The notes under the pieces: model-generated
The model's database searches: none
Told to the model about the DNA's origin: nothing
Seen by the model: the letters and a program-made list of their open reading frames with translations, nothing else
Position numbers and translations under genes: made by a program
IMG/VR virus record: IMGVR_UViG_3300008221_000015
Coordinates: 1-36,310 of that record
DNA from: a virus
Length of the DNA stretch: 36,310 bases
Direction: 5' to 3' (one strand)
In this document: positions 3 through 23,900 of the stretch, one piece after another
Position numbering within the stretch: the first letter of the stretch is position 1
Layout: every line of letters starts with the position of its first letter

Positions 3-944
3 TCAGACAAATATGACCTTCGCCAGCGCGCAATTCTGGTGAAGGTTAACACCTCACTATTCGGCACCCAGAAGAAAGACAAGGATGCAACGGCTTCCAC
101 TGCCGATCAGTATGGAGCCAGCGTCGATCAGGTGGCCGTGACCAAGTCGATCATCAATCGGAAAAATCCTTTGTTCAAGAATATCGACAAGATCAAGGGT
201 CAGATACGCAACTCGCATCTGGCAATGACAGGTTGCTGGAACGATGATTTTCGCATCATCACAACCAAAAAATACACCATGTGGCGCTCCACAATGGATG
301 AGTTGATCAGCGATTTCAATGATGCAGTCGATCAATTCGTCAGAGCCAGATCAGATATTATCGCTGAGGCTCAGGACAACCTTGGCACTCTGTACGATCC
401 CAGCCTCATACCAACAGCGGACGAAATGCGCGAAGCATTTTTCGCAGGTGTCGAGACTGAGGTGCTACCGGATCGTGGTAACACAATGCTTGATCTCGAT
501 AAGGTCCAGATGGACCGCATAGTGGCAGACGCCAACGCCGCCGATCAACAGCGGATCGAGACCCTTGCGACAGAGACACACGACAAAGTCCGCAGGGAGC
601 TTAAGAACATGATCGATGCGCTTAAGACCTACGGAGACGCCTTGCCCGATACCAAACGAACAAGCACATTTCGCGACAGTTTGGTGAAGCGTATGGCAGC
701 TTTAGCTGACACGTTGCCAGCTCTGAATATCATGGGATGCCCAAAGCTAGACAAACTAGCCAAGGATATCGCCGCAGAGCTGACAGTCGTAAGCTCCGCT
801 GAGTTGCGGGGTGACGCAGTCAAGGGTGATAACAAATCAGCGGAGAGGGCAGAGGCTGAGGCATCAAACAAGCGTGAGGCAACAGTCAAAGCCGCCGAAA
901 ATATTCTGTCTGATCTGGACGGGGTCTTCGGCAACACTGCCTGA
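3..944 (+). CDS. Conserved phage protein of a MoxR/VWA cassette (5'-partial)
   Basis: The reading frame is open to the left edge of the window, so the gene starts upstream. The GTG at 39 has no Shine-Dalgarno sequence, and the residues before it (DLRQRAILVK) continue the protein naturally. The product is soluble, mostly helical and ends in a charged, Ala/Glu-rich tail. It resembles, from memory, a conserved phage family whose N-terminus reads like RA-LV-L-IS-W, found between a MoxR-type AAA+ ATPase gene and a VWA gene in several phages, including N4-like ones. The next gene, 32 bases downstream, is a VWA protein, which supports this. The ATPase would lie left of the window. The molecular role is unknown; a partner in an ATPase-driven remodelling complex is inferred. 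Confidence 0.75.
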   Translation, partial: SDKYDLRQRAILVKVNTSLFGTQKKDKDATASTADQYGASVDQVAVTKSIINRKNPLFKNIDKIKGQIRNSHLAMTGCWNDDFRIITTKKYTMWRSTMDELISDFNDAVDQFVRARSDIIAEAQDNLGTLYDPSLIPTADEMREAFFAGVETEVLPDRGNTMLDLDKVQMDRIVADANAADQQRIETLATETHDKVRRELKNMIDALKTYGDALPDTKRTSTFRDSLVKRMAALADTLPALNIMGCPKLDKLAKDIAAELTVVSSAELRGDAVKGDNKSAERAEAEASNKREATVKAAENILSDLDGVFGNTA

Positions 945-976
945 CCAATACTCACAATCAATGGGAGATATCGATC

Positions 977-2332
977 ATGAAAAATACACCAGAAAAACGT
1001 GCGCTCGACAAACTGGACGTTGGCCGCAAATTTATCATGCGAAATCAAGCCTTCTTTGCATCACTTATGCTGGGCCTCGACATGCAACAAGATGACAAAG
1101 TCGAGACGATGGCGACCAACGGCAAAAACTTGTTATGGTGTGCGGACTTCGTTGCTAACCAATGTGATCAGGACAAAGTATCGTTCATCATTTTGCATGA
1201 AATCTTGCACGTAGTCTTCAAGCACCACCTGCGGCGGGGCAACCGTGATCCACGTTTGTGGAATAACGCCGCCGACTATGTGATCAATGCCCAGATCGTC
1301 AATATGGGCTTACGCTACAAGATGACTGTTGATCAGTTCCGCAGGTCCAGCAGCCGTTGGTTAAGAGAGATTGCCCATTACGTGAGACCTGAATATAAGA
1401 TGCCTGAAGATGGCCTGTTCGATCCCAAGTATTTTGGTATGACCACTGAGGAGGTATACAACCTGCTCAAAAAAGAGGGTGACAAAGAGGCTGATAATAA
1501 GAGCGAGGCAAGCTCAGGTGTAGGAGGAGAGACCCAGCCCAGCGAAGAGACCCAGCCCAGCGAAGAGACCCAGCCCAGCGAAGAGACCCAGCCCGATCAA
1601 GGTGCAGGGGATTGTCCTTGGGGTGGCGTGTCCGATGCTACAGGCGAAGACGGTGAAGCCCTGACGCCGGATGAGCTACAAGAAGTCGAGCGTGAACTGA
1701 CCCGCCAGATCAGTACGGCGGTCAGTATCGCCAAGGGACGGGGGCAGTTGCCCAGTGGATTTGCAGATGCGATATCCGCTGACAATGCACCATCTCAAGA
1801 TTGGTCAGATATTATACAAGCCAGTTTGCAAGATGATGCCCCTAGCGACTTCTCGTTTTCCAAGCCTAATCGTTTTTATATGGACGGCGACATCATCATG
1901 CCGTCAGTCGAGCGAGATGGTATGGGTCCAATTGCAATATTCGCAGATGCATCAGGCAGCGTATCATCTGGAGAGTTCGCCCAGTTCATGAGCGACATCT
2001 CAGCGATCTGCGAGGAGCTTAACCCTGAAAGCGTGATGCTCATCCAGTTCGATACAGACTGTGCCGAGCCTGAGTATCTGGAGAGAGGCGATACGCCTGA
2101 GCTGGTACGCCGCAAGGATGGCGGCACGACATTCTCTGCCCCCTTCAAATACGCAGAGAAGCATGACCTGCTTGATGACCTCGAAGCCATCATCGTATTC
2201 ACCGATGGCGGAGACAACCAGTACGCCGATGAGCCTGATTGCAAAGTGATCTGGGCAACCACTGGTGCCTTCTGGAACGGCAAGCCACCTTACGGCGAAG
2301 TCGTAAGCGTTACCTTTAACAAAGCCGCATAG
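977..2332 (+). CDS. Metallopeptidase-like / VWA-domain protein (DUF2201 type)
   Basis: The 451-residue protein has two parts. The N-terminal part carries a zinc-peptidase-like motif HEILH (residues 74-78) followed by KHH at 82-84, as in the DUF2201 N-terminal domain. The C-terminal part is a VWA-like fold with a MIDAS-type DASGS at 324-328 and TDGGD at 409-413. A low-complexity acidic linker (about 170-205) holds ETQPSE repeats. The start is supported by GGGAG nine bases before the ATG. Such proteins pair with MoxR AAA+ ATPases (RavA/ViaA-like systems) and are thought to act in chaperone or metal-insertion complexes. The upstream gene is the cassette partner. Whether the peptidase site is active in the phage protein is unknown. 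Confidence 0.85.
   Translation: MKNTPEKRALDKLDVGRKFIMRNQAFFASLMLGLDMQQDDKVETMATNGKNLLWCADFVANQCDQDKVSFIILHEILHVVFKHHLRRGNRDPRLWNNAADYVINAQIVNMGLRYKMTVDQFRRSSSRWLREIAHYVRPEYKMPEDGLFDPKYFGMTTEEVYNLLKKEGDKEADNKSEASSGVGGETQPSEETQPSEETQPSEETQPDQGAGDCPWGGVSDATGEDGEALTPDELQEVERELTRQISTAVSIAKGRGQLPSGFADAISADNAPSQDWSDIIQASLQDDAPSDFSFSKPNRFYMDGDIIMPSVERDGMGPIAIFADASGSVSSGEFAQFMSDISAICEELNPESVMLIQFDTDCAEPEYLERGDTPELVRRKDGGTTFSAPFKYAEKHDLLDDLEAIIVFTDGGDNQYADEPDCKVIWATTGAFWNGKPPYGEVVSVTFNKAA
1529..1594 (+). repeat. 18-bp in-frame tandem repeat in the VWA gene linker
   Basis: Three perfect copies of an 18-base unit (gagacccagcccagcgaa) start at 1529, 1547 and 1565, followed by a 12-base partial copy. Each encodes ETQPSE. 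The perfect identity suggests recent expansion by slippage, so linker length may vary between related phages. Confidence 0.95.
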
Positions 2333-2333
2333 C

Positions 2334-2360
2334 TAATCGGGGAGGCGGGAACGCCTCCCC
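2334..2360 (+). terminator. Strong hairpin after the VWA gene
   Basis: A perfect 9-bp stem (GGGGAGGCG at 2339-2347 with its complement at 2352-2360) is closed by a GGAA tetraloop of the GNRA type, starting six bases after the VWA stop codon. No U-tract follows, so it may be an RNA-processing or stability hairpin, or a partial terminator. Almost the same sequence recurs at 31207-31230. Confidence 0.6.
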
Positions 2361-2386
2361 TCATCTACTTAAAAGGAACCACTATC

Positions 2387-2617
2387 ATGACGCAACTACA
2401 CGTAACCCACATCGTTCGCGCTTTAGAAAATGTATATTTATGCTCCAGTACTGAGGATAGATTAGCTTTGACCTACAACGCATGGAACCAATTCATGCAA
2501 TCCCGTGGCACGTTATCTTTACCATTTAACATAAGATTAAGTGAAAGCAATGTGATTAATATGCAGGGTGACCAAGGTGTAGTCATCACAGACGCGAGCA
2601 ACATAGGGAGAAAATAA
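2387..2617 (+). CDS. Hypothetical small phage protein (76 aa)
   Basis: I do not recognise this protein. It is soluble with no clear motif. AAAAGGA lies nine bases before the ATG and gives a good ribosome binding site. It begins a run of short plus-strand genes, and its stop is one base before the next start codon, which suggests co-transcription and coupling. Confidence 0.7.
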   Translation: MTQLHVTHIVRALENVYLCSSTEDRLALTYNAWNQFMQSRGTLSLPFNIRLSESNVINMQGDQGVVITDASNIGRK

Positions 2618-2618
2618 A

Positions 2619-2879
2619 ATGATTTATATTGTAACAAACGAAGCAGGAAAAGGCATCAGATTGATCACGGCCTTCGAAGACAAAGCAGACTTCGCGCAAT
2701 ATGCCGATGACGTGACCGCCTATACCAGCACCAATATCCTGCGATCAGACAACATTGATGATATCTGTCATAAGCTTATGGATGCAGGTATGGGCTTTGG
2801 GATGCGGCAGCACAACCGCATAAGCAGGAAAGAAGCAAAGCGTCATGTCAGCCAAGGTGTGAAGAGTTGTGGAATGTAA
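2619..2879 (+). CDS. Hypothetical small phage protein (86 aa)
   Basis: I do not recognise this protein. It begins with a short hydrophobic strand (MIYIVTNEAGKG) and ends in a basic tail. AGGGAG precedes the ATG inside the end of the previous gene. It is followed by a 254-base stretch without a gene that is rich in hairpins. Confidence 0.7.
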   Translation: MIYIVTNEAGKGIRLITAFEDKADFAQYADDVTAYTSTNILRSDNIDDICHKLMDAGMGFGMRQHNRISRKEAKRHVSQGVKSCGM

Positions 2880-2883
2880 CAGA

Positions 2884-3120
2884 TTAAGGATACGCGCTGG
2901 GTAGTGACCAGCTAGTCGGCAGTCCCACACTGTGACGATGGAAGCGGGTTCAAGACCCGCAGACAAGGGCTTGCTCAGATGAGCCGGGGATAGGCTTCGT
3001 TAGTTAGGTGTGTGGAAACTTTAAAGAAGCACACCTAACCCTAGATATTCAAAAGTTCCCCAGCGCTATCGGGGACGATAGCGCTGGGTGGATTTCCACG
3101 CAAGATAAATAATTAAATAT
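2884..3120 (+). ncRNA. Structured non-coding region / possible 5' leader RNA
   Basis: No convincing ORF lies here, but there are six stem-loops in about 195 bases: GCTGG/CCAGC (2896-2912); a bulged 7-bp stem (2915-2936); a T-arm-like GCGGG/CCCGC with loop TTCAAGA (2944-2960); GCTC/GAGC (2973-2984); a perfect 10-bp stem (3003-3012 with 3030-3039); and a perfect 13-bp stem with a GGGA (GNRA) loop (3059-3088). TGGAAA in the loop at 3013-3018 can pair with TTTCCA at 3093-3098, giving a possible pseudoknot. It lies directly upstream of the Shine-Dalgarno of a 32-residue peptide. It could be a regulatory leader or a small RNA. A canonical tRNA cannot be drawn. The strand is inferred from the neighbouring genes. 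Confidence 0.4.
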
Positions 3121-3133
3121 AAGGAGAACAATC

Positions 3134-3232
3134 ATGACTACAACTGTAAAATTTTGCTGGCTTTTCCTGTCACTATCGGCGGGCTTTACGATAACTGTAA
3201 TTTTAGTACTACTCGATGCGTTTGTTTATTAA
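3134..3232 (+). CDS. Small hydrophobic membrane peptide (32 aa)
   Basis: A short ORF begins MTTTVKFCWLFLSLSAG and continues with a hydrophobic stretch to a TAA. A strong AAGGAG (3121-3126) sits eight bases before the ATG. Nearly the whole peptide could span the membrane once. It is placed just after the structured region at 2884-3120. I do not recognise a family. Small hydrophobic early phage peptides can act on host membrane proteins or as superinfection or toxic peptides, but nothing here shows which. Confidence 0.55.
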   Translation: MTTTVKFCWLFLSLSAGFTITVILVLLDAFVY

Positions 3233-3274
3233 GACCGCCCACACCCCCAACCAAAACAAGAAGGAAACAAAATA

Positions 3275-3484
3275 ATGTATATCAACAAATTATCCATCGA
3301 AGCTTTCAACGATTATCAAGTCAAAGGTAAGAAGCCCCAGTCAGATAAAATTGCTACGTTTTCTTTCCACGAAAACATGGGCTACGACAGTGAAAAACTT
3401 GAACCCCTGTTAGATGCGGTTAAAGACCTACACCCCTTTGACCCTGTACGCCTTGTTGTATCGTATGAAACCGATAATGCTTAA
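3275..3484 (+). CDS. Hypothetical small phage protein (69 aa)
   Basis: I do not recognise this protein. AAGAAGGAAAC precedes the ATG at a usual distance. The composition is mixed and soluble with no membrane segment. It belongs to the run of short plus-strand genes and is separated by 42 bases from the membrane peptide upstream. Confidence 0.65.
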   Translation: MYINKLSIEAFNDYQVKGKKPQSDKIATFSFHENMGYDSEKLEPLLDAVKDLHPFDPVRLVVSYETDNA

Positions 3485-3510
3485 CCCCAATAGCCAGCGG
3501 GAGATCACTT

Positions 3511-3702
3511 ATGAAAAACAAAAATACTTGGGATGCACTCTCTCCAAACTTTGCAGAGAAAAGCGATTGGAGCGAAGCCGTCCGCTTGGTAGGCCAAGCT
3601 GTAGATATAGCCCGTCAAAAACTATATCAAGATCGTTCTCAAGGAGCAATGGAGACCGCCGAAAGATTAGAGACCGCATGGAAACTACTTCAGCAGAGAT
3701 AA
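3511..3702 (+). CDS. Hypothetical small helical protein (63 aa)
   Basis: I do not recognise this protein. It is predicted helical (SDWSEAVRLVGQAVDIARQK, then AMETAERLETAWKLLQ), so probably a two-helix hairpin. GGGAG lies upstream of the ATG. Twenty-six bases separate it from the gene before. Confidence 0.65.
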   Translation: MKNKNTWDALSPNFAEKSDWSEAVRLVGQAVDIARQKLYQDRSQGAMETAERLETAWKLLQQR

Positions 3703-3718
3703 GGGAGAATATATTATA

Positions 3719-3907
3719 TTGGTAAAAATCAAACCCATCCAACCTACGCCCCGTAAAGTATCCAGAGAAAACCATCACAAAGGCCAGACCGCCAGCAACG
3801 ATAACCGCGCACTGGTAACAACCAACATCCCTACCACCTCACCCACAACCAAGCCAGTTATCTACGCAGTGACTGATCGAGGTACTTTACTCGACATAAT
3901 CGTATAA
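3719..3907 (+). CDS. Hypothetical small basic protein (62 aa, TTG start)
   Basis: Translation would begin at a TTG, with AAGGGAGA (about 3701-3708) at acceptable spacing. The N-terminal half is basic and Pro/Thr-rich and probably disordered, ending in a short hydrophobic strand (VIYAVTDRGTLLDIIV). I do not recognise it. The TTG start lowers confidence, but the frame fills the gap between two well-supported genes. Confidence 0.5.
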   Translation: MVKIKPIQPTPRKVSRENHHKGQTASNDNRALVTTNIPTTSPTTKPVIYAVTDRGTLLDIIV

Positions 3908-3925
3908 CAAGGAGTGATCACTATC

Positions 3926-4243
3926 ATGATTAAAATGAACAGCGAACTCAACCCGGTGACCAAGGCGGTCATCAAACGTATCCGCGATTGGTGTGACGAC
4001 TGCTTGAACACCAACAGCCTACTCACCGACCAACATCACGGCATCGATGGTATCGAATACCATCGTGATGAAACGGGCAAGCTAACCTTCACAACATTAG
4101 ACATCGACAGGGATGAAGAAAACCAAGAAAGAACACATCCGTTCTTCCTGATCCCGCAAATGCTTATTGCAAGCACCAGCCTCGCATCAAGTAATGAAAT
4201 ACACGAAGCACTTGATGATCACTTCAAGCAAAAGGACACCTGA
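3926..4243 (+). CDS. Hypothetical acidic phage protein (105 aa)
   Basis: The ATG at 3926 is preferred because AAGGAG (3909-3914) lies eleven bases before it; an in-frame GTG at 3914 overlaps that site and is unlikely. The protein is soluble and rich in Asp, Glu and His, with a central segment HHGIDGIEYHRDETGKLTF that looks like a beta hairpin. I do not recognise a family. It ends three bases before the next start. Confidence 0.65.
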   Translation: MIKMNSELNPVTKAVIKRIRDWCDDCLNTNSLLTDQHHGIDGIEYHRDETGKLTFTTLDIDRDEENQERTHPFFLIPQMLIASTSLASSNEIHEALDDHFKQKDT

Positions 4244-4246
4244 ACC

Positions 4247-4435
4247 ATGACCAACAATGCCCGTGAACTCATAGCCACATTGTCTGACCCTAAATACCTA
4301 AACATGTATCGGGCATTCAATAAGATGATTGACCGCGCAAATGATCCAGCATTCAAAAAAATATGGACATCCAAACGTGGACAGGTTGCACGATTGGCCG
4401 ACCAATGTTTACTAGAGGAAACTAAAAATGCTTAA
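4247..4435 (+). CDS. Hypothetical small helical protein (62 aa)
   Basis: I do not recognise this protein. It is helical and slightly basic (KMIDRANDPAFKKIWTSKRG). AAAAGGAC precedes the ATG. Its end overlaps the start of the ribbon-helix-helix gene by eight bases, so the two are probably translationally coupled. Confidence 0.65.
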   Translation: MTNNARELIATLSDPKYLNMYRAFNKMIDRANDPAFKKIWTSKRGQVARLADQCLLEETKNA

Positions 4436-4589
4436 CCCTATTAAGAAGAAAAAAGATATCCGGGTCACTGTACTGGTTAAACCCGAGCTACACCCTCGTC
4501 TAAAAGCTCTAGCTCTTTCAGAGGAGCGATCTGTTTCCAAAGAAATAATCTCTCTCATCAAACAAGCTCTCAAGGAAAAAAACCTATGA
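4428..4589 (+). CDS. Ribbon-helix-helix (Arc/CopG-like) DNA-binding protein, 53 aa
   Basis: The 53-residue ORF has the RHH pattern: a basic N-terminus, one beta strand (IRVTVLVK), a first helix (PELHPRLKALALSEE), then RSVSKEIISLIKQALKE as the second helix. Proteins of this fold dimerise through the strand and place it in the DNA major groove; phage examples include Arc and Mnt. AGAGGAA lies before the ATG at 4428. The stop overlaps the next start as ATGA. It could control this early cluster, possibly at the repeats in the nearby intergenic region, but no target is proven. Confidence 0.75.
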   Translation: MLNPIKKKKDIRVTVLVKPELHPRLKALALSEERSVSKEIISLIKQALKEKNL

Positions 4590-4849
4590 ATAATAAAACT
4601 CAAGTCCACGTATTAGCTATCAACCCTCGCGCCCAGATCGTAGCCGACAACAGGCAATGGATTGTGCAGGTCCGAAGTAAAGCTTCAGCCCCTTGGAAAT
4701 CCAAACACTTCATCAGCTCAACAAGAGGCGTCTTGCTTATGACCCTTGATGAAAACAAGATACATCCGACCGACAAAGGCAAAGACGCCATCCACGCCCT
4801 ACCTAACACATATAAACTATGGGCGGATGAACACCTAGCCGCCGCCTGA
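4586..4849 (+). CDS. Hypothetical protein (87 aa) coupled to the RHH regulator
   Basis: I do not recognise this protein. It starts within the stop codon of the RHH gene (ATGA overlap), which implies coupled translation and perhaps a shared role. The sequence has several beta-strand-like segments (QVHVLAINP, QWIVQVRS, GVLLMTLDE) and an acidic, Ala-rich end. It is the last gene of the plus-strand cluster; a strong hairpin follows 19 bases after its stop. Confidence 0.65.
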   Translation: MNNKTQVHVLAINPRAQIVADNRQWIVQVRSKASAPWKSKHFISSTRGVLLMTLDENKIHPTDKGKDAIHALPNTYKLWADEHLAAA

Positions 4850-4868
4850 ATACGCCTACTAACCCCTT

Positions 4869-4906
4869 GGCCTGTATCTGGGGTATCCAAACCCCAGATA
4901 TAGGCC
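4869..4906. terminator. Long hairpin after the left plus-strand operon
   Basis: A 15-bp stem (4869-4883 with 4892-4906, one G-U pair) encloses an 8-base loop, 19 bases after the last gene of the operon. There is no U-tract on either side, so it may work as a factor-dependent or bidirectional terminator between converging operons. Confidence 0.5.
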
Positions 4907-4977
4907 AACACCCCTCTAAACGGCTCCTAGCCGCTCCTCCACCCCTACCAGAAACAAAATCATGCAAAATATCCACT

Positions 4978-5249: not shown

Positions 5250-7418
5250 TCAATCCCACTCGATTTTATGCCCAAACCACTTTTCAAAACCCTCACGGCA
5301 GTATTCCAATTCAGAAAATACATAAAAATATTGACGTTTATTGTTTCTCATAAGACGCGATCTAGTAACATTACTACCAAGCATATCATTTAAACGCCTC
5401 CCAAAAGCCCTCCCCGACTGTGAGTAACGAAAGCCGTGATCCCGTGAATAGTCCCTATATATCTCATATAAATCCTGACATAAGACATCTACAGGCCATA
5501 ATTCGCCATCTTCAAAACCGGTTTGGGTGCCTGATATAGCGCCTTCCATCAAGCATTCATGTAACCACTTAGCTTCGATATCCAGAGTTTCCTCTTTCTG
5601 GTCAGCCAATGCTTGGGTCTTTGGCGGTACATGCACCAGCGTTTGATCCACATCCATCAATGACAATGCCGTCATTAAGCATTTAAACCCGTGGTTATCT
5701 TCACCCTCAAGCTGGTCATAAATAGCCTTGAAGTACGCCTTGTCTCCACGCATTAATGCGAGACATGCGAATACGCCGAAACGTCTTTCATCTACTGTGG
5801 CGGGGATGGCCCATGCGTTGTTGGACGTTATGTAAATTCTTGCGAAGTTGCGTACCATGTAAGGCTCGTAACCTTTACGCTCGATTGCGTGATCTTTACC
5901 TGTGATCACATGCTTGAGCTTTCCCTCTGCGGCTTTGTCTCCGGCCCAGAAGGCTTCCTCAAACTGGAACGCAAGCGCGCTCTCCATGTGCGAGTTGAAC
6001 TGCCCCAAGAGCATACGCTTCTCAGCAGTAACTATGTAATTGTCCCGCATCAAGGCACCGATTACATCAAAGATAAGAGACTTCCCCACACCCTTTTTAC
6101 CTGTGACAACGATAGCGGTTTCAGGCTTCTTCCAAGGATATTGGATAAGATGCGCGAAGTGATTGATCACCCACTTGTATGATTTTATATCGCCGCCGCA
6201 TACGACATCACGTATGTGTTTTAGATATTTATCACAGCCAGCCTTGGCGTCTTCCAAGGTCATTCCATATATAGGCTGGTGTGTGAAGCCCCGCCAATGG
6301 TTGTACTTACCATGCACGGGGCCGATGACTTGCGGATCGAATGTAAAGCCACGATAGGTGCGGCGTTTCTCAGACATGATCCAAGCTCTGGATATGTATA
6401 CCTTCTTATCATCGTCATCTATGAAGTAATCCGCGACAGTCATGCCGTGGAAGGTTTTCTCACCATATGTCGTGAATCGGGGACGGCCATTCGGGCCGAT
6501 GTATTCTTCGCCAATGACATGCGAGGTGCCGATGGCTATGTAAGAGAACCTCTGATAAAAGCGTTCCATTGCAGACAGTGTTCGTTTTACTACAGGGCCA
6601 CTATCTGGCTCGTCAGCGAACTGAGCTTCAGCCGTATCACGGCCAATCTTGGAGGACGAATACTTATAAGCGTTCCCTACTTTGACTTCTAATTCATTTA
6701 TATCCCACGGCGGCTCGCACCTGTCATTCCATCCAGCCTCTATCATGAGCATCTCAAGACATTTAGTTTCCGATATACCCATGTCGCGTACCCGTGCAGC
6801 CACACCAAATGCCGTGGCGTCACCGCCTGATCCCTCAATGGATATATGCGCGTGTTGATCTAGGTATTTCTTGGCTGACTTGATGTTCTCAGGTGTGTCT
6901 AAATCCCCCACAGGAATATCATGTTCGTCTTCACGTACTTTAGCTTTGTTGCATATAGCTATAAGCCCATCAGGTGCCTTCAACATTTGTGCGCCAATAG
7001 TTATAACCTTATAAGCCACGCCATCTAATTCACTTCCGGGGCCGACTACATATCCGCCCAATCCTCTTATATCTACGCCGTCGCATATACTGCTGGCGGA
7101 GTTGGATACATCTACATCTGTTTCATAATAAAGATGCCGCCCACCTGATGGAGTCTTTACTTGGAACGGACTCTCTTTGATGCCCAACGCAGTCCAGTTG
7201 GCCTCCCCGTCAAACTCTTTCATATCGATATCCACGACCAATAACCCACCGCCTGTGGCGACGCCGATGTTATAATCTTTACCATTGGCCCAAGCTTTAC
7301 CATCAGGCTTGGCTTCTTTCTGCCACCCACCTGCGTAAGGCTTTTTATCATTAGGACGTAATCTAAATATATTAAAACTTTTAGCAGCCAATGCTGCTGC
7401 AAACTTTTTCCTGATCAT
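5250..7418 (-). CDS. Bifunctional prim-pol / superfamily 3 helicase
   Basis: The 722-residue replication initiator has two enzymes. The N-terminal archaeo-eukaryotic primase (prim-pol) domain shows the metal-binding VVDIDMK (62-67), SGGRH (91-95) and DIRG (116-119). The C-terminal half is a DUF5906/D5-like SF3 helicase with Walker A GKKGVGKS (about 440-447) and a later acidic Walker-B-like EEAFW. Such proteins prime DNA synthesis and unwind the template. It is last in the replication operon, and its ATG overlaps the polymerase stop (ATGA), so translation is likely coupled. Length and motif order are typical for phage prim-pol helicases. Confidence 0.93.
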   Translation of the reverse strand: MIRKKFAAALAAKSFNIFRLRPNDKKPYAGGWQKEAKPDGKAWANGKDYNIGVATGGGLLVVDIDMKEFDGEANWTALGIKESPFQVKTPSGGRHLYYETDVDVSNSASSICDGVDIRGLGGYVVGPGSELDGVAYKVITIGAQMLKAPDGLIAICNKAKVREDEHDIPVGDLDTPENIKSAKKYLDQHAHISIEGSGGDATAFGVAARVRDMGISETKCLEMLMIEAGWNDRCEPPWDINELEVKVGNAYKYSSSKIGRDTAEAQFADEPDSGPVVKRTLSAMERFYQRFSYIAIGTSHVIGEEYIGPNGRPRFTTYGEKTFHGMTVADYFIDDDDKKVYISRAWIMSEKRRTYRGFTFDPQVIGPVHGKYNHWRGFTHQPIYGMTLEDAKAGCDKYLKHIRDVVCGGDIKSYKWVINHFAHLIQYPWKKPETAIVVTGKKGVGKSLIFDVIGALMRDNYIVTAEKRMLLGQFNSHMESALAFQFEEAFWAGDKAAEGKLKHVITGKDHAIERKGYEPYMVRNFARIYITSNNAWAIPATVDERRFGVFACLALMRGDKAYFKAIYDQLEGEDNHGFKCLMTALSLMDVDQTLVHVPPKTQALADQKEETLDIEAKWLHECLMEGAISGTQTGFEDGELWPVDVLCQDLYEIYRDYSRDHGFRYSQSGRAFGRRLNDMLGSNVTRSRLMRNNKRQYFYVFSELEYCREGFEKWFGHKIEWD

Positions 7419-9330: not shown

Positions 9331-9356
9331 AAGGGGAGGCGGATATGCCTCCCCTT
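9331..9356 (-). terminator. Hairpin with U-rich tail between SSB and polymerase genes
   Basis: A perfect 10-bp stem (AAGGGGAGGC at 9331-9340 with its complement at 9347-9356) and 6-base loop lies between the SSB stop and the polymerase start. On the minus strand it is followed by TTATTTCTATC. It is a likely partial terminator that would give more SSB than polymerase mRNA. The stem core matches the hairpin at 2339-2360. Confidence 0.55.
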
Positions 9357-9367
9357 CAGTCTTAGTT

Positions 9368-9982
9368 CTAGATGAAGTCGTCGTCGTCGTTGTCATCCGC
9401 ATTAATGGGAACGACATTAGTAATATCTTCCGCTTCAGCGCTATCCTCTTCATCATCAAAATCTGAGTTCGGATCAGTTGACCCGCCACCCAAAGCATCC
9501 CCGGCTTTAACGAGTAGAACATTGCCCATGTAGAAAGTGACACCTGAGTTGCCGTCAACTTTAAAACCTTTGGCAGCCAGCATAACTTTTACATAGTCCC
9601 CGGACTTAATCTCATCAGCTTCTACTTTATGCATGACACCGCCGACTTTGCGGACAACTTTCGGGGCTGTGCCATAAGTCGATACATTTATATATTGACC
9701 ACCTTCCTCATGGCCGTCCTTACCATCTTGGTCTTCACCATCGCGGAAGGGCCAACCTGAGCCTTTAGCAAGTTTCTTCTTCTTTACACCTGAAGGCATT
9801 TTTGCTTCAGAGCCGTAGAAGTCCATAGCTGCGTCCCATGCGGCATCTTCAAGGGCTTCAAGGTCTTCACCCGGAGCGAAGATCAACATTGCAGAGTACT
9901 TATCTTTGCCATTGTTGGCCTTCTCAGGAGTGTGAAGTCTGGCATAACTTAACCTTGCCAGTGGCGTTTTGACTTGAGACAT
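9368..9982 (-). CDS. Single-stranded DNA-binding protein (DUF2815, T7 gp2.5-like)
   Basis: The 204-residue protein has the OB-fold layout of DUF2815: an N-terminal segment (TPLARLSYARLHTPEK), Lys/Gly-rich middle strands, and a final strand before a long acidic tail ending DDNDDDDFI. Acidic tails with a terminal aromatic residue recruit replication partners in phage SSBs. AAAAGGAAG precedes the ATG. It follows the DUF2800 nuclease gene by 24 bases. A hairpin after its stop may limit downstream transcription, fitting the high SSB amounts a phage needs. Confidence 0.88.
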   Translation of the reverse strand: MSQVKTPLARLSYARLHTPEKANNGKDKYSAMLIFAPGEDLEALEDAAWDAAMDFYGSEAKMPSGVKKKKLAKGSGWPFRDGEDQDGKDGHEEGGQYINVSTYGTAPKVVRKVGGVMHKVEADEIKSGDYVKVMLAAKGFKVDGNSGVTFYMGNVLLVKAGDALGGGSTDPNSDFDDEEDSAEAEDITNVVPINADDNDDDDFI

Positions 9983-14908: not shown

Positions 14909-17900
14909 CTACTGTTGCAGAGTACGCGAAAGCTGACGTACCAGCCGCCTACGTCTCCTAAATTCATCAGCAGTCTCTCTATCAATAAGAGTTTTCGCTC
15001 TTTTGGTAGCGCCTTTGAGGAAGGTGTTGCCAAGTTTCCACTTCGGAGCTTCTTTGCCACGGGCCAGAGCGTTCGAGTATTTTTTAGATAGATTTGAAAC
15101 TCTCAATATTTTTCTAATTTGCTGATTACTCAAACCTGATTTCCGTGCAGCGTTAACAATTTGCATCATATCGTTATATCCACGAACCCTGATATCATTA
15201 GCACTCTTGAAGGCAGAGGCTAAAGCATCATCATCGACAGGATTGATATCTGAAGCCGCTTTATATAGATAAGAGTTTGCATTGCTCAGTTGTTCTTTAA
15301 AGTTGCTCACGCGATAATACATGGCGAACTTCGGATCGAAGGTGGAAAGTCTCACACCGAAGGTGGCAGCGATTTCATCTTCAAGTTTGTAAACTCTACC
15401 TTGTGAGGTTTTCTTATCGAAGGCAGCTTTATATATGCGAACAATCGGAGACACAACCCCCGGCCCTAATGTAGTGATCAGATGTTCTGCGATATCCGCA
15501 GATTGGTCCAGACCCGGCGCATCCGGGTTGAATATTGGCGCGCCACTGCGTATTTTACTATTAGAGACTAATTCAAATATGGAACCAGCGGCAATATCCA
15601 ATCCAAAGAAAGGCTTCCATACCTCATTAACGGCTCCGGCAAGGCTATCTCCCCAAGGTTGGTTACGCATCAGCGCAACGAGTGGCTTGTGAAAAATATT
15701 ATAAGGATCGACAAACGATAAATCTATCGTTCGCATCCTGCCGTCATCATCGCGCCCCAAATAAGCAATCGCTGAGTTTTCAGCCCAAGGACTTCCTAAC
15801 TTCCGCATTGCTTCTTCTTCGTCGTCATCTACTCCATAAAGTGCTGCGGTCATACTCGCAGCCGCTCCAGCCCATGCGTGAGCAACCGCCATTCCAACCA
15901 TACGTTTGTAAGCTAATGGTCTCAGGTCTGGGTCTTTCAAATCTGATTGGATGAGCTTTATATTGTTTATAGATGTTCTGATTATCTCAGACGAGAACGC
16001 AACAAACGAACCAACAAGCGGGAACCTACCCAACGCCTTCATGCCCTTACCCGTTAACGAGTAAGTCGGAACGGTATCGCGGGTTCGTTTGGCGGCCATT
16101 GCCTCGATTTCTTGAATTGACAAGTTGGGTTTAGCTTGAGCTAGTTGCGCCTTGGTGCCTTCATAAGCAACTATCTTCCAGAAATCATCTGAAGCACGGT
16201 AAACTTTTTTAATATTATCATTCCACCTCTTGAGCGTATTCTTGGCTATTTTCGCTGGAGCGCTATACCCAGTAGCGTTATCTATCGCGGCAAAGACTTG
16301 CTGGCTATCATCCAACAAATCCTGAAGCAACCCAGCGTTAGGTGTATCATAAAGCACACCTTTCTTAACAAGATCACGGTAGTATTCCACAGAGCCACCC
16401 TCTCTTGCTCGGATTTGATCCGTCACAGTTTGCATAGCTAACTTCATATACCTTAAATCAAACGTACCGCTTTGCATTACAAAGAAGGGTGCAGACATGA
16501 AGTTTCTGACTTGAGTTGCTGGCGAAAGAACGACCTTGCCATATTTAATAGCGCCGTTGATGCCAATGACGTTGTTCAGATACTGCGGTAGCGAACTTTT
16601 TCCAAGGGCATCTTCTAAAGCCTGTTTAACTTCCGGCGTCGTGAACATACCGTTAAGTGGCTCCATAACCTTAGAAGAGTTCCCAGCTAATTTGGCAGTT
16701 GCCTCTGGTGGACGACGAGGGTCTCCTTCTTCGAAAAGAAAATTACCGTCACCTTTTTCTTTGAGTACATTTAGAAAATGAGTGTTGTGGATGAGACGGT
16801 TCATCTTTAACATTGTTCGAGCATAGTTCACATCAGCGTCGGTATTCTCACCTAACAACGCTCGTATTTCCGGGGCAATATTCTTGCGGCCCATCAGTAT
16901 AGTTAAATCTTTAGCACCAAGAGTGGACTCTTTTATTAATCCCTCCATATTCATAAATGCGGTCTTATCACCTTTAACGAGTTCGTTTAGTTTTAATTCA
17001 GCCACATTGTAGTCGCCGTCATATTGAGTTGCTAAATAATTAAGCGCAGCAACGGTCACTTCTGGGGGTAGTTTAGTAAACCAGTTTGGATCGGTGAAGA
17101 CTTTATAAGAGCGGGAAACATAAGTGCCTTTATTATCCACGATGGTCTTTTCAAGAGCTTCCGCACGAGCAGCGGCAAGGTCGCCTCCTTTAGCTTTGTA
17201 CTCTTCATCTAAGGCTCTTGAACCTTGAGCTTGTTCGCGAAGTTCTCTTATCTGTGTTTTCAGTATTTTCACATAGCTGTCCGACATTGCATCGATGTCT
17301 TGACGCATTTTAAACACAGCTCCCCGTATTGCTGGGTCAACATTTACACTTTCATCGCCATGTAAGAGGGCGTCGATATTATTTTTCTGTTGAGAAGTTA
17401 GAAAAAGATAATGCTTTCCGTAAACTTTCTTGACCGCTGTCTCAAAAGACTTAAGCGATCTCATAACAATATCATCACCTACACGGAACATCCCGTCGCG
17501 CATGACTTTAATATCAAGCACTCCTTCTGGCAACAAGCCGCCCGGAGATAGCCAGCGTTTTCTATACTTATTAGCTTTATTCCAGATAGTCTTATCTTTT
17601 TCGGTAAGTCTATCTTGAACACCTTGTTCAAAACTGTTCAGGTTCGTAACAGAGAACTTAGGATCGCTACGATCATATTCTTCATTAAATACAGATTTAA
17701 TATCGTCACGATTGAACAGCCCATAATTTATAGGGTTCATATTAGAGATAGGATCACTAGGACGTTCTACGACTGCAAAGCCGTCAAAGCCATTTTCTCG
17801 TAGCATCTTTGTAAAATAGAATGGTTCTATGATATCCCAAGCGCCCTGTTTTAGTCTTTTTAGCATTCCGTTTAGTTCGTAAGGCTCGATTCGCGGACCA

Positions 17901-20900
17901 ATACCATCAAGTACAGAAAAAGGGTTGGCAGCAACTGTTTTAATATGTTGCGTCCCTAACTCAATATGCTCTGGGTCTCTAAAATCAAATATCTTCTTAG
18001 GAGACATGAATACGGGAAAAATCCGTGGACGCTTCTGGATGGGTGCAAAATCGCCTTCACTATTTAATTCGCCTTCATAGGATGTTTCATACTCTCCGAT
18101 GAAATCTTCAACAAAATCTGGTGACTCACTTACAAAGGTTGCCTCTGATTTATGTTTCATAGCTATCACATCAAAATCTTCTCTAGCGCCAAAATACAGA
18201 ACTTTAGGATCGCCAGAGCCGTCTTCATTTAGAGCTTGTTTGGATGGGTTCTTAAACCAGTTTCTAAAATTATCTGTGTTTATTGGCCCAGCAACAGAGA
18301 ACTTAGTTAACGGAGTTTCATTTTGTCCTCGTCCATCAACTTCTGCACTAGTTGGGTCAACCCCGATAGCACTTTCGGATCGTTGAGATCGAGCATCTTG
18401 TCCAGTGATGGCTCCTGCTCCAGTTCCTCCGCTTCGATCTCTTGCAGCTCCTCGGACTTCATTATTCTGTCTCCCTAAAATTCTAGTAAAAGCAGTGTCA
18501 TAGCTCTCATTGAGTGAACTTTCAGGTATTACAGGGACACCAGCTTCATTCACATCCAACTTCAACCTAAGCGCGCCCCAAAGTTCTTTTTCAGGATACC
18601 ACAACATAGCTTGCATGTCCGCCATTGTCATTCGCACCCCACGTTCGGCCAGTATCTCTAACGTCCGCGCCCCAGCAGCTTCGATCTGTCTGCGTTGAGT
18701 GCCGTTGGCTACTTGATCAAGGGGTTTAGCTAAGTTCGTGACTATTGTCTTAGCGGCTCTAGCCCAAGTAGGTTGTAGCTCGGCGGGGATTTCCTCTGAG
18801 TTACTGACGCTGACGAGGCGGTGATATTCTTTAGTCCACACACTTAATGCGCGCTTGGCATAATCGAGCAAAGCCTTATCATTATTGTTGTATTCTGGCT
18901 TCCAGACTTCAGGGATTTTGATGCCTTGCAGATCGGCAGCGATCTCTTTGGCTTCGACCAACTCCGCAGCGAGGCGTTTAGTTTCTTCAGTGAACGCTTT
19001 CTTGGTGGCAAACTCTGTAACGGGTATCGTCTTGAATTGCTCTAATTCTTTTTCCAACAAGCGGACGTAAGACCGTGCAGCCTCGACGTGATCCTCGACG
19101 CCTTGCTTACGAGACCTTGACCGGACGATAGCGCGTTTAAATCTGTCGCGCTGCTCAGGAAGCGCGCTTGGGTTTCCTATACTCTTCCCGGTCAGACGGC
19201 CCCATGTGCGGCGCATCCATAGATCGATGGTCAGTGGGTTAAAATTCTGATTGAGGTTTTGCCAAAATCCATTACCAATTTTTGGGCCAAGGATTGAGGA
19301 GCCATAAACTACGGCGTCCATAGCGGTCTGCCCGGGAGTGGTGTATGGGATGCCCAAGCTCCTGAACTCGGTGACCCAATCTTTAACAGTCATGCTTCTG
19401 CGAAAAGTCATGTCGAGTTGAGCGAGTTTCTCAGGGAAAGTCTCGCCGGGCATACGGTCAAGCGTAACCCCAAACTTCTTGAAGTTTTTCGCCATAGCTT
19501 TTTGTTTATCGCCAGTCCCGTAAGACTCCAACATATGGAATTTACCCGCTTTGACACGCTTTACCATATCACCAAAGGCTTTATCAGTGGCGATAGCGTT
19601 GGCGTCCACGGCGAGGTTCTGTGAGGTCACCGCCATGATGTAGGTGAAGACAAACCGGGCATTAGCCGCAGTACCGAAGCCCGCTTCAGCAGCGGCAGCA
19701 TCGTCAGCGATCATTGGGTATTTCACTTTAACTACATCGAGGGCGCGGTCTAGTGCGCCAGAGTACCAATCGAAGGCGTTGCTACTTCCTGCAAACCCTA
19801 GTTGGACTTCAGCGGCCATGAGTGTGGCAACTTCTTCAATCCGCTCAGGCGACAATTCTGCCTTCATATCAGTAACGGCTTCGCCTTCGAAGGCTGTCTC
19901 CAGCCAACGGGCGGCATCTTGGTTACCACCTTTCATCCGCGCAGCAGGAATAGCGCCGGGACGGTAGATAGGATTGACCCGCGCTGCCATTGCAGGGGAT
20001 AGCCCAAGACTGGCAGGATCAGCTTGAAGTAACTGTTGGCCGGGGGCTACTGAGTATTTTGTACCTTCAGTGTTGTCATAAACGAGGCTCTGCCCATCCC
20101 CGGACGTTCCTGTTCCTCGGCCAGACCTTTCCGCAACGCTGTCGCGTACGGACCGTTTCCAAGGCCCGCGCTCTCCAACTCCTCCAACAGTGTTGGAGTC
20201 GGTGTCGGGGTTGGTGAGGGCTTCTGCTGTCTCATCGTATGTTCCTTCTCTACCTAGCGCAGCGATATACTTAGCGGCTCTCGCGCTGCCTATGTTAAGT
20301 TCGTTTACTCTTTGTACTATTACATCAAGCTCCGCAAGAGTGTCAAGTTTGTTCTGTCGTACGTCTGCTTCCGACAGGCCGGTATACTCTGGCACCCAGA
20401 TAAACCGTATACCTTCATACCCTTCGGTGTCGCTCGTAGCATCGTTGGATTGAAATGCTGTGTAACCTTGGACATTTGTAGTCTGGAGTTGGTCAATAAA
20501 CTCTTGGACCTCTTCCAATGTCCGGCCTGTGGTGCCGCCCATTGATTTAGGATAGAAATAGATTGTCAGACCGGGGCGGACGTTATCACCATCGTAGTCA
20601 AGCGGCACTTCCACAGCGGCAAAAGCGTCTGTTTGTTTATTGCGCTTCGCAGCCAACATAACTTCAGCGGCTGCGTTGTTGACGCCTGTCATACCCTCGC
20701 CGCCGGGGAAACTAGCGTCGAAACTAACAGATAGTTCTTGGAAGTCGCCATACATGCCTTGGGCGGCTGAGTTGGTTACTCGTGCGCCGTGGGTCTCGGC
20801 AGCTTCTTTCATAGGTTGACTCAGTTCGCGGATGACCTTCTGGCGAAGGCCGCCACTGGTCGCAAAGGTTTGCCGGGCCAGATAGGATATCTCCTCCTTG

Positions 20901-23900
20901 AGGCGCACAACAGATGCATCCATCTGCAATTGGTCGTAAGCAAGTCCTGCGAAGAACCTGAGCTGTCCTTCAGACTTATTGGCAGCAATCACATCATCCA
21001 AACGTGAAGTCATCTCACCGTCAGGGAAGATGACGCTTTGTGGCATCGGGATGATATCTTCTTGATCTTGAGCCTTCAGTTCACTTGGTAAATCAGACGG
21101 AGGATTCTCGCCCCACCTGTGCGTGTCGTGGATCATTATTACAGGGATCAAGTCGAATCCCAGCATTTCAAGCGCCCGTACCCTATGGCGTCCTTCATGG
21201 CCGTTAACTTGTCCTAACGTCCCGTCACGCCCGCCATCCATTATAAGACGAGGGAGTTCATTCACCAACATTCCCCGGTCAATGTTGTCAGCGTAAACTT
21301 TCACTTGGGTAGGGTTGCGTAGATTACGCAGCGACATAAGCCTGTATTCGTCCGGTGTCATAAACACCAGCGTGGACCTGCTCTTATCATTAACCGCATC
21401 TCTGAGTTGAGCGTTGACCCCGTCGCCATCGAACAGATTAAATATCTGAAGCTTCTTTAGCTCCTTGACCTTATCCTGTGGCGACATCTTCTCAATTTCT
21501 TGAACGGGGGCTATAGAGAAGCGCGGTACTGTGCTTGGTGGCGAACGCCGCGCCTCTTGCATTCTCATATACTCTTGAATATCGTTCTCAGATGCTACAT
21601 CTCCAGCGTTCTTGCCATCTTTGCGATCCATAGGATAGAACGTCACGATAGCGGCATACTTGACTCTATCTTTGGTGTACTTCTCCAGCCCCAACACATA
21701 TACAGTGCCGTCGCTGGGGTCTTTCCAAGTCATTTGGTAGTCAAGGTCGCTTCGTTCAGCGGGGTCTTTCGCTACATATCTTCTTACTCGATGATCTTTA
21801 CTGCCTTTTATATACGACTTCTCAAGCATACCCTTTAGTTTGATAGACATCTCTCTAACACTGCCAAAGCGAGCTGCTTTGGCTACGATATGCTCGCGTC
21901 CAAAACCTGCACCGTTTTGATCGACGCCTTGCAAAAGAACAACCGGCAGCGGCTCACCACTATCCAACCAAGCCATACCTCGTGTGTCTTCATTTAAGCT
22001 CTCATCGACTCTAGAAGATACAGCGGGAGCGAATTGTGTTGCGAGTTGATATTCGTAATTATCTAACACTCGACCCCAACGACGCACAGAAAACTTCGGA
22101 GCTTGCTTCTCTTCATCCCAATTAGGATCATCGATATAAGGCTCATCAACTCTGAAGGCGTCTTTGTTTATAGCAGCAGAGGATTGAGCCAAATTTTGTG
22201 CATCAAGATCATTCGCAGCGGCAAAATGTCTAATAAGGGGTTTCTTAAACTCACCCTTGATCTGACGATATACTTTAACGCCGTATTGCCTCATATATGG
22301 CTGGTCAATACGGGGAGGCGCTACGTCTGGCCCTCCTAGCGTGATCGGAGCTACATCTTGTTCCGCAGCTTGAGTGTGGCGATCAGTGTCTTCTTGCATC
22401 ACTTCGTCGTGGTACGCCTGAACCTCTGGCGAGACTTCTTCATTAAACGCAGCCTCAACCTTCTTGACCTCGTCGTGCAGTTGGGTGTCGGACATGGCTC
22501 TAGCCACGGAGTACATAACCGAGCTAGAGATCAGTTCTGTTTCTGGGTCGCTACGAATATACTGTTCGTAGGTTTTCAGGAACATCGGCTGAATTTGTCC
22601 GGCTTCCAGCGCGATACCAGATGCTTCCTTACGGTCAACGAAGCCCCCGCCCCATTCTTTGGAGAGCATGAAGCCTTCCGTTATATATCTCGCTTCGTAA
22701 TCTTCGGGGATTTTACCATCCTCTAAGGCTTGGTTTCGGAGGCTGGCGTGTTCTTGCCCCGGAAACCCTATAATGGTCTTGCCTCTGTAGGTGAGCGCAG
22801 GTGCAGTGAGCGCCTTTGGTTGGCCTTCTGCAACGCTATATTGTACATGATCGGAGGCCAGACCTTCAGTCGCCACACCGTCACCCTGCAAAGTGCCAGC
22901 GTCAATCTCGCCAAAGATATCACTTACATTACGAGCGCCGTTCTCTTTGAAGAACCCGCCCAGTGTAGTGAAGAACTTAACGATCCTACGGAACAGGGAT
23001 GCGGGTTTGCCAGTCGCTATGGACGGGTCTTTAGTCCAATCCCTGAATAACTCTGCAACCGCTTCTTCTTCAAGTTCAATCTTCGATAAGTTAGGTTGAG
23101 ACGCCTTTACGTCATCAAAATAAGTCCACTTGGTCTGACCCTCGCCAAACATTCTGAACCCTTCCGGGCGGGTCTTACTAGTTGCCATGCGGGTGAGGAT
23201 ACTCATATCACTATCATTAAGTACGCCTACACCTTTAAGCGCATGGATTTGCTCATGGGATAAGACATCCAATAGGTTCTGAAGGACAACACTATCGATC
23301 AAGTGGGCAGGTGTGTCTTGTGGCACCTTATCCACAGCGACATCCAAGCCAACGTAGATCATCTGATTGACGTATGCGCCTTCTGTGCCTTCTGGAGCTG
23401 CGGACTTTGCGCCGAGGGCTGTTCTGACGCTATTAACTACATTGATCGGGATGCCCAGCTTTTGCAAACCACGGCGCTCATTTACTTGTTCCAAAGCCTC
23501 GCGGATACGAGTTACCGAGGCACTTGAGACTGGGCCGTTTTTAGTGCGCTCTCTGACTTCGGCGGCGTACATCGCAGGGTCAGCCGCCATGCCGCGCAGA
23601 TCGGCGGAAGTAGTCGGCACACTCATGTTCTTGTCGCGGCCCGTCTCAGGGTTACGCATACGGCGGGTCACCTTGGAAGGAGCCTTAGCGTAGCGTTTAG
23701 CGTTCTCCTGAGCTTCAGCAAGATTATTATGGACGCTGATTACTTCTTCAGCGCCTGTATCTAAAGCGCTTGGCTTTTTCGGTTTAGCGATTACATGGTA
23801 GCCAATCTCTCTGACTGGGCGGCCATTTTCATCGCGTCTGAGGTTGCCCTCTTCATCCGTTGCAGCAACCGTTCGCTCTTCAACGGTAAAGTCTTGCTTG

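What the first reader, a model, noticed from the sequence alone, without database searches (positions are those of the whole stretch)
2884..3120. Hairpin-rich non-coding region ahead of a 32-residue membrane peptide
Six stem-loops lie within about 195 bases, including a perfect 10-bp stem and a perfect 13-bp stem with a GNRA loop, plus a possible pseudoknot (3013-3018 with 3093-3098). A T-arm-like hairpin (2944-2960) and a D-arm-like one (2896-2912) are present, but no acceptor stem. This density is not explained by a gene and may be a regulatory leader, a small RNA or a tRNA-derived element.
Basis: partly seen in the sequence, partly recalled or inferred. Interest (0 to 1): 0.65.

Follow-up and report, generated by a model that had tools for sequence, protein, structure and literature searches.

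The report
Folded spacer in a phage operon
A 254-base non-coding stretch between two phage genes contains two unusually stable RNA hairpins just before a tiny membrane-peptide gene; it most likely acts inside the phage's own messenger RNA (processing, stability or translation), which is ordinary, and no relative of it could be found to prove more.

Summary
The gap 2880-3133 lies between an 86-aa gene and a 32-aa single-TM peptide gene inside a co-directional early operon of an uncultivated podovirus-like phage. It is non-coding and folds better than shuffled sequence on the + strand (z = -4.8, 0/200). All the excess comes from the 3' part: 3001-3104 has z = -7.3 (10-bp and 13-bp GGGA-capped hairpins), whereas 2881-3000, with the D-arm-like and T-arm-like hairpins, has z = -0.1. 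The proposed pseudoknot is present but only marginally better than chance (p about 0.03). There is no Rfam, tRNA or tmRNA match. The 5' part is GC-rich (57.5%), and its T-arm resembles a tRNA-Cys T-arm of a distant relative, so a decayed tRNA is possible. No homologue was found in about 2.2 Mb of viral loci searched with a covariance model, so there is no covariation evidence for or against. Best reading: a cis-acting intercistronic mRNA element, a stable structured block followed by an AU-rich, unstructured ribosome-binding site. In support, hairpins sit at the DUF2201 stop in all seven genomes examined, and relative L003 has a different structured spacer before a small TM protein at the matching place. 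Function is inferred, not shown. Low to moderate interest.

The parts
2619..2879 (+). upstream ORF, 86 aa, unknown function; its stop ends at 2879
   Evidence: ORF list; no Pfam or PHROG match
2880..3133 (+). non-coding intercistronic spacer, 254 nt
   Evidence: no gene on either strand; fold z = -4.83
2881..3000 (+). GC-rich 5' part (57.5% GC against 43-44% in the flanking genes) with D-arm-like 2896-2912 and T-arm-like 2944-2960 hairpins; possible tRNA remnant
   Evidence: z = -0.11; GC; tRNA-Cys similarity
3003..3039 (+). 10-bp perfect stem, 17-nt loop
   Evidence: z = -3.8 for 3001-3045
3013..3018 (+). 5' strand of possible pseudoknot (TGGAAA)
   Evidence: complementary to 3093-3098; duplex energy p about 0.03
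3059..3088 (+). 13-bp perfect stem with GGGA (GNRA) loop; extends to about 19 bp with one bulged U (roughly 3053-3095)
   Evidence: fold of 3048-3097: -31.6 kcal/mol, z = -7.78
3093..3098 (+). 3' strand of possible pseudoknot (TTTCCA)
   Evidence: (I3)
3103..3120 (+). AU-rich, unstructured stretch (AGATAAATAATTAAATAT) leading into the Shine-Dalgarno
   Evidence: 3105-3133 is 17% GC; 0.18% of 29-nt windows are this AT-rich; mostly unpaired in the ensemble
3121..3126 (+). Shine-Dalgarno AAGGAG, 7 nt before ATG 3134, predicted accessible
   Evidence: sequence; pairing probabilities
3134..3232 (+). 32-aa single-TM peptide MTTTVKFCWLFLSLSAGFTITVILVLLDAFVY
   Evidence: ORF; mean hydropathy 2.38 over 17 aa; no family match

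Best explanation
The spacer is a cis-acting intercistronic element of a polycistronic early mRNA read from the + strand. Its 3' part, two very stable hairpins that may be tied by a pseudoknot, forms a rigid block. That block is a candidate for nuclease processing and then 5'-end protection of the downstream mRNA. It is followed by an AU-rich, unstructured ribosome-binding site that lets the 32-aa membrane peptide, and perhaps the genes after it, be translated independently of the upstream DUF2201 section. Shown here: non-coding gap, significant + strand structure confined to 3001-3104, SD predicted accessible, operon context. Inferred: that it is transcribed, processed and affects stability or translation. 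The 5' part (2881-3000) is probably a passive or decayed insert, possibly tRNA-derived.
For: 3001-3104 folds far better than chance (z = -7.3). The GNRA cap occurs on the + strand only, and + strand z is stronger than - strand z. The block sits inside a run of + strand genes, 39 to 4849. There is no U-tract after the 13-bp hairpin, so it is not a plain terminator. The SD and AU-rich stretch are predicted open. Intercistronic hairpins are habitual in this phage group: one lies at or just after the DUF2201 stop in the window and in all six related contigs examined. Relative L003 (primase 59% identical) has a 206-nt structured spacer (z = -3.3) before a 61-aa TM protein at the matching place.
Against: No homologue and hence no covariation. 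L003's spacer has no significant sequence similarity to it (21 of 300 shuffles score as high). Relatives L005 and L007 have small TM ORFs in the same operon without such a spacer. No transcript data. The pseudoknot is marginal (p about 0.03).
Confidence: 0.45

Rival explanations
1. A discrete structured non-coding RNA of the phage (trans-acting, for example an antisense or protein-sequestering RNA) made from, or processed out of, 2880-3104.
For: Raised GC of the 5' part (57.5%) and strong 3' structure; no coding content.
Against: No promoter-like or terminator-like signal on the + strand in the gap; no Rfam family; no relative in any collection searched; the 5' 120 nt fold no better than shuffles.
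Confidence: 0.18
2. Decayed tRNA (tRNA-Cys-like) plus two unrelated intercistronic hairpins: the gap is a relic, without a function as a unit.
For: T-arm with T-loop consensus; GACGAT-(4-nt insert)-GCGGGTTCAAGnCCCG shared with the tRNA-Cys of related phage L087, which lies just after DUF2201 there (score 32, null 20.7 +/- 2.7); raised GC.
Against: No acceptor stem, poor anticodon arm, no U33; ARAGORN and Rfam tRNA models negative. The similarity covers about 23 nt and is inflated by the generic T-loop, and it was tested after the T-arm had already been singled out.
Confidence: 0.17
3. Type I toxin-antitoxin-like unit: a structured leader restrains a toxic hydrophobic peptide, with an antisense RNA from the other strand.
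For: Peptide size and hydrophobicity fit membrane-associated type I toxins (under 60 aa, hydrophobic; PMC8309996). A weak minus-strand promoter-like match at 3228-3200 points into the leader.
Against: Promoter-like sites are fewer than in shuffles (1 against 3.3). The SD is predicted open rather than sequestered. The peptide lies inside an operon, and the leader is absent in relatives whose operons carry small TM ORFs.
Confidence: 0.08
4. DNA-level site (protein-binding palindromes, replication or recombination site) rather than an RNA element.
For: Perfect inverted repeats fold on both strands; local GC skew changes sign near 3100.
Against: GNRA loop and pseudoknot pairing favour RNA; no direct repeats or iterons nearby; no similar element in relatives. 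Copies of the palindrome in bacterial genomes sit mostly in terminator-like A/T-flanked hairpins. The whole-window skew mostly follows gene direction.
Confidence: 0.12

Closest known systems
T7-type intercistronic RNase III processing hairpins and stem-loop-plus-AU-rich gene leaders of phage mRNAs (own knowledge)
   Same: stable hairpin between co-directional phage genes, followed by an open AU-rich stretch and a strong SD
   Different: no sequence relationship tested or seen; processing not demonstrated; a possible pseudoknot and a long GC-rich 5' part are added
T4/RB69 gene 32 translational operator (pseudoknot followed by UUAAA/UAAA repeats and SD; PMC535899)
   Same: structured, possibly pseudoknotted block 5' of an unstructured AU-rich stretch containing UAAA/UUAAA and the SD
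   Different: the downstream gene is a 32-aa membrane peptide, not a single-strand-binding protein; the pseudoknot is larger (10-bp stem, inserted 13-bp hairpin) and unproven
HDV-like self-cleaving ribozymes (own knowledge of the fold)
   Same: strand order P1-P2-P3?-P1'-P4-P2' can be drawn on 3003-3099
   Different: the P4-P2 joining strand is TGGA with no catalytic C, P1 is 10 bp instead of about 7, no Rfam match
tRNA / phage tRNA genes
   Same: T-arm with consensus loop; local similarity to the L087 tRNA-Cys
   Different: no acceptor stem, no canonical anticodon arm, no ARAGORN or Rfam tRNA match

Membership tests
tRNA | 7-bp acceptor stem closing D, anticodon and T arms | tested here: not met
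   no complement to 2961-2967 upstream; ARAGORN default negative and relaxed calls are low-scoring; no Rfam tRNA match at E <= 10
tRNA | T-arm with G53-TTCRA-C61 loop | tested here: met
   GCGGGTTCAAGACCCGC at 2944-2960
tmRNA (permuted) | tRNA-like halves pairing around a tag ORF | tested here: not met
   the ARAGORN low-threshold hit joins distant pieces by treating the excerpt as circular, and 85 low-threshold hits appear across the window at -ps70; the Rfam tmRNA match is a 17-nt fragment of 6.1 bits
Intrinsic terminator | GC stem followed directly by a U-tract on the + strand | tested here: not met
   no + strand site in 2880-3133
HDV-like ribozyme | catalytic C in the P4-P2 joining strand and about 7-bp P1 | tested here: not met
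   joining strand TGGA, P1 of 10 bp; no Rfam hit
Type I toxin-antitoxin | hydrophobic peptide shorter than 60 aa | tested here: met
   32 aa, one TM stretch
Type I toxin-antitoxin | antisense RNA gene overlapping the toxin mRNA | tested here: inconclusive
   one weak minus-strand promoter-like match, not above chance
Type I toxin-antitoxin | leader sequesters the SD | tested here: not met
   SD mostly unpaired in the predicted ensemble; some type I mRNAs are controlled in other ways
T4 gene 32-type translational operator | pseudoknot 5' of an AU-rich UAAA/UUAAA stretch with the SD | tested here: inconclusive
   possible pseudoknot p about 0.03; AU-rich stretch present with two TAAA
T4 gene 32-type translational operator | downstream gene encodes the single-strand-binding protein that represses it | tested here: not met
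   the downstream gene is a 32-aa TM peptide
Intercistronic RNase-processed mRNA hairpin | stable hairpin between co-transcribed genes | tested here: met
   z = -7.3 to -7.8, inside a co-directional gene run; co-transcription itself is inferred
Intercistronic RNase-processed mRNA hairpin | mapped cleavage ends or altered mRNA half-life | not testable with these tools
   needs RNA-seq or primer extension

The most novel reading that the evidence does not exclude
A new class of phage structured RNA: a pseudoknotted, GNRA-capped leader controlling small membrane peptides in the DUF2201-primase early operon of these podoviruses, with a sequence-divergent counterpart in L003, acting as a protein-binding translational switch or a type I toxin-antitoxin-like control.
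Probability: 0.12. Interest if true: 0.55.

Novelty: new member of a known kind. Interest (0 to 1): 0.25.

Why it matters
If the block controls the membrane peptide, it would be a handle on how these uncultivated podoviruses regulate small early host-facing proteins. If it is only an intercistronic hairpin set, it documents a habit of the group: the hairpin at the DUF2201 stop is kept in all seven genomes examined although its sequence is not.

Tried and rejected
tRNA: ARAGORN default and relaxed, Rfam permissive, negative apart from a local T-arm similarity. Permuted tmRNA: relaxed ARAGORN hit is an artefact of circular wrapping and low threshold. Rfam riboswitches and ribozymes: nothing at gathering or credible at E <= 10. 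HDV-like fold: topology can be drawn but no catalytic C. Intrinsic terminator: no U-tract. Replication origin: no repeats, skew tracks gene direction. Homologue searches: blastn against phages and plasmids; primase and DUF2201 relatives; flanking small proteins; covariance model R1 over 1.40 Mb (window and relatives) and over 0.78 Mb of contigs sharing the 15-nt loop; exact motif patterns. None found. Six genome hits to the palindrome are bacterial hairpins, mostly terminator-like.

Full report
Setting. The window is a whole IMG/VR virus record of 36,310 bases. It carries replication genes on the minus strand: a VirE-type primase at 5250-7418 whose relatives are annotated DNA primase or virulence-associated protein E, a PolA-like polymerase and others. 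It also has a 3,780-aa ORF and a run of plus-strand genes from 39 to 4849 that includes a DUF2201 metallopeptidase/VWA protein. The finding lies inside that plus-strand run, between an 86-aa ORF ending at 2879 and a 32-aa hydrophobic ORF starting at 3134.

Observation. The gap is 254 nt without a gene; six-frame segments find no convincing relative among related phages. On the plus strand it folds to -89.1 kcal/mol, z = -4.83; minus strand z = -3.90. Cutting the region in two shows that the excess is all in 3001-3104 (z = -7.33) and none in 2881-3000 (z = -0.11). The 10-bp and 13-bp stems are perfect, and the 13-bp stem is capped by GGGA. The pseudoknot pairing 3013-3018 with 3093-3098 exists, but 3% of shuffles pair as well, and the loop has an alternative partner at 3052-3060. 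So two of the six stem-loops carry the signal. In a window-wide scan the place ranks among the top structured sites, below the 18-bp hairpin at 4867-4908.

The 5' part. It is GC-rich (57.5% against 43-44%). Its T-arm-like hairpin has a consensus T-loop, and a match of all but one position, with a 4-nt insertion, to about 22 nt of the tRNA-Cys of related phage L087, which sits directly after DUF2201 there. Shuffled targets never reach that score, but the similarity is short, rests partly on the universal T-loop, and was tested after the T-arm had been singled out. There is no acceptor stem and no tRNA call. A decayed tRNA is possible, not shown.

Relatives. Primase searches gave relatives at 53-63% identity and DUF2201 searches gave others. 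None contains the element by blastn or nhmmer or by the covariance model R1. Pattern scans in viral contigs gave nothing, or chance loop matches that R1 does not support. Phage and plasmid blastn were negative. L003 has, at the matching place, a 206-nt non-coding spacer with z = -3.3 before a 61-aa TM protein, without sequence similarity to this one. L005 and L007 have small TM ORFs without such a spacer. In the window and six related contigs a stable hairpin sits at or just after the DUF2201 stop, so intercistronic hairpins are a general habit here.

Mechanism. The arrangement is a rigid 3' structured block, then an AU-rich 17% GC stretch, then AAGGAG 7 nt before ATG. The stretch is unpaired in the predicted ensemble and rare for this genome. 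This suits an mRNA element that marks a processing or stability boundary and leaves an open ribosome-binding site. It resembles T7-type intercistronic hairpins (own knowledge) and, in layout only, the T4/RB69 gene 32 operator, a pseudoknot followed by UUAAA/UAAA repeats and the SD (PMC535899). It is not a member of the latter, since the downstream gene is no SSB and the pseudoknot is unproven. Type I toxin-antitoxin control fits the peptide's size (PMC8309996) but lacks a credible antisense promoter and a sequestered SD.

Verdict. Real structured non-coding spacer, narrower than reported; most likely an ordinary cis-acting intercistronic mRNA element. The tRNA remnant, separate ncRNA and DNA-site readings remain open at lower probability.

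Noticed in passing
window 4867-4908: 18-bp near-perfect hairpin (z = -8.6 for 4860-4960) between the converging plus and minus operons; the ARAGORN tRNA-Pro call at 4868-4957 (-) overlaps this hairpin and is probably false.
   Followed up: partly
window 2339-2360; L003 about 15365-15390 (-); L084, L085, L086, L087, L089 at the DUF2201 stop: A stable hairpin lies at or just after the DUF2201 stop in the window and all six related contigs, sequence-divergent; loops include GGAA, GCAA and GTAA.
   Followed up: partly
L003 17873, 16820, 15347 (-); L086 6909, 11695; L084 9360; L085 9336; L087 9361: The motif ACTATGTG recurs in intercistronic spacers or hairpin loops of the relatives, several directly after DUF2201, though its total count in all loci is at chance level; possible promoter or RNA-binding site, not seen in the window's spacers.
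   Followed up: partly
L087 9378-9453: tRNA-Cys (GCA) gene directly downstream of DUF2201 in a related phage.
   Followed up: partly
window 9331-9356 (-): 10-11 bp hairpin (AAGGGGAGGC/GCCTCCCCTT) in the short spacer between the 204-aa gene at 9368-9982 and the polymerase gene; its stem resembles the GGGGAGGC hairpin after DUF2201 at 2339-2360.
   Followed up: no
window 1528-1594; L003 about 16100-16215 (-): In-frame short tandem repeats in the linker of the DUF2201 protein, with different repeat units in the two phages (ETQPSE in the window, DDGDDDNNG in L003).
   Followed up: no
window 2381, 3128, 3920: Three gene starts share ACTATCATGA-like sequence around the ATG (family D5).
   Followed up: no
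window 14909-26251 (-): Single 3,780-aa ORF, about a third of the genome record.
   Followed up: no
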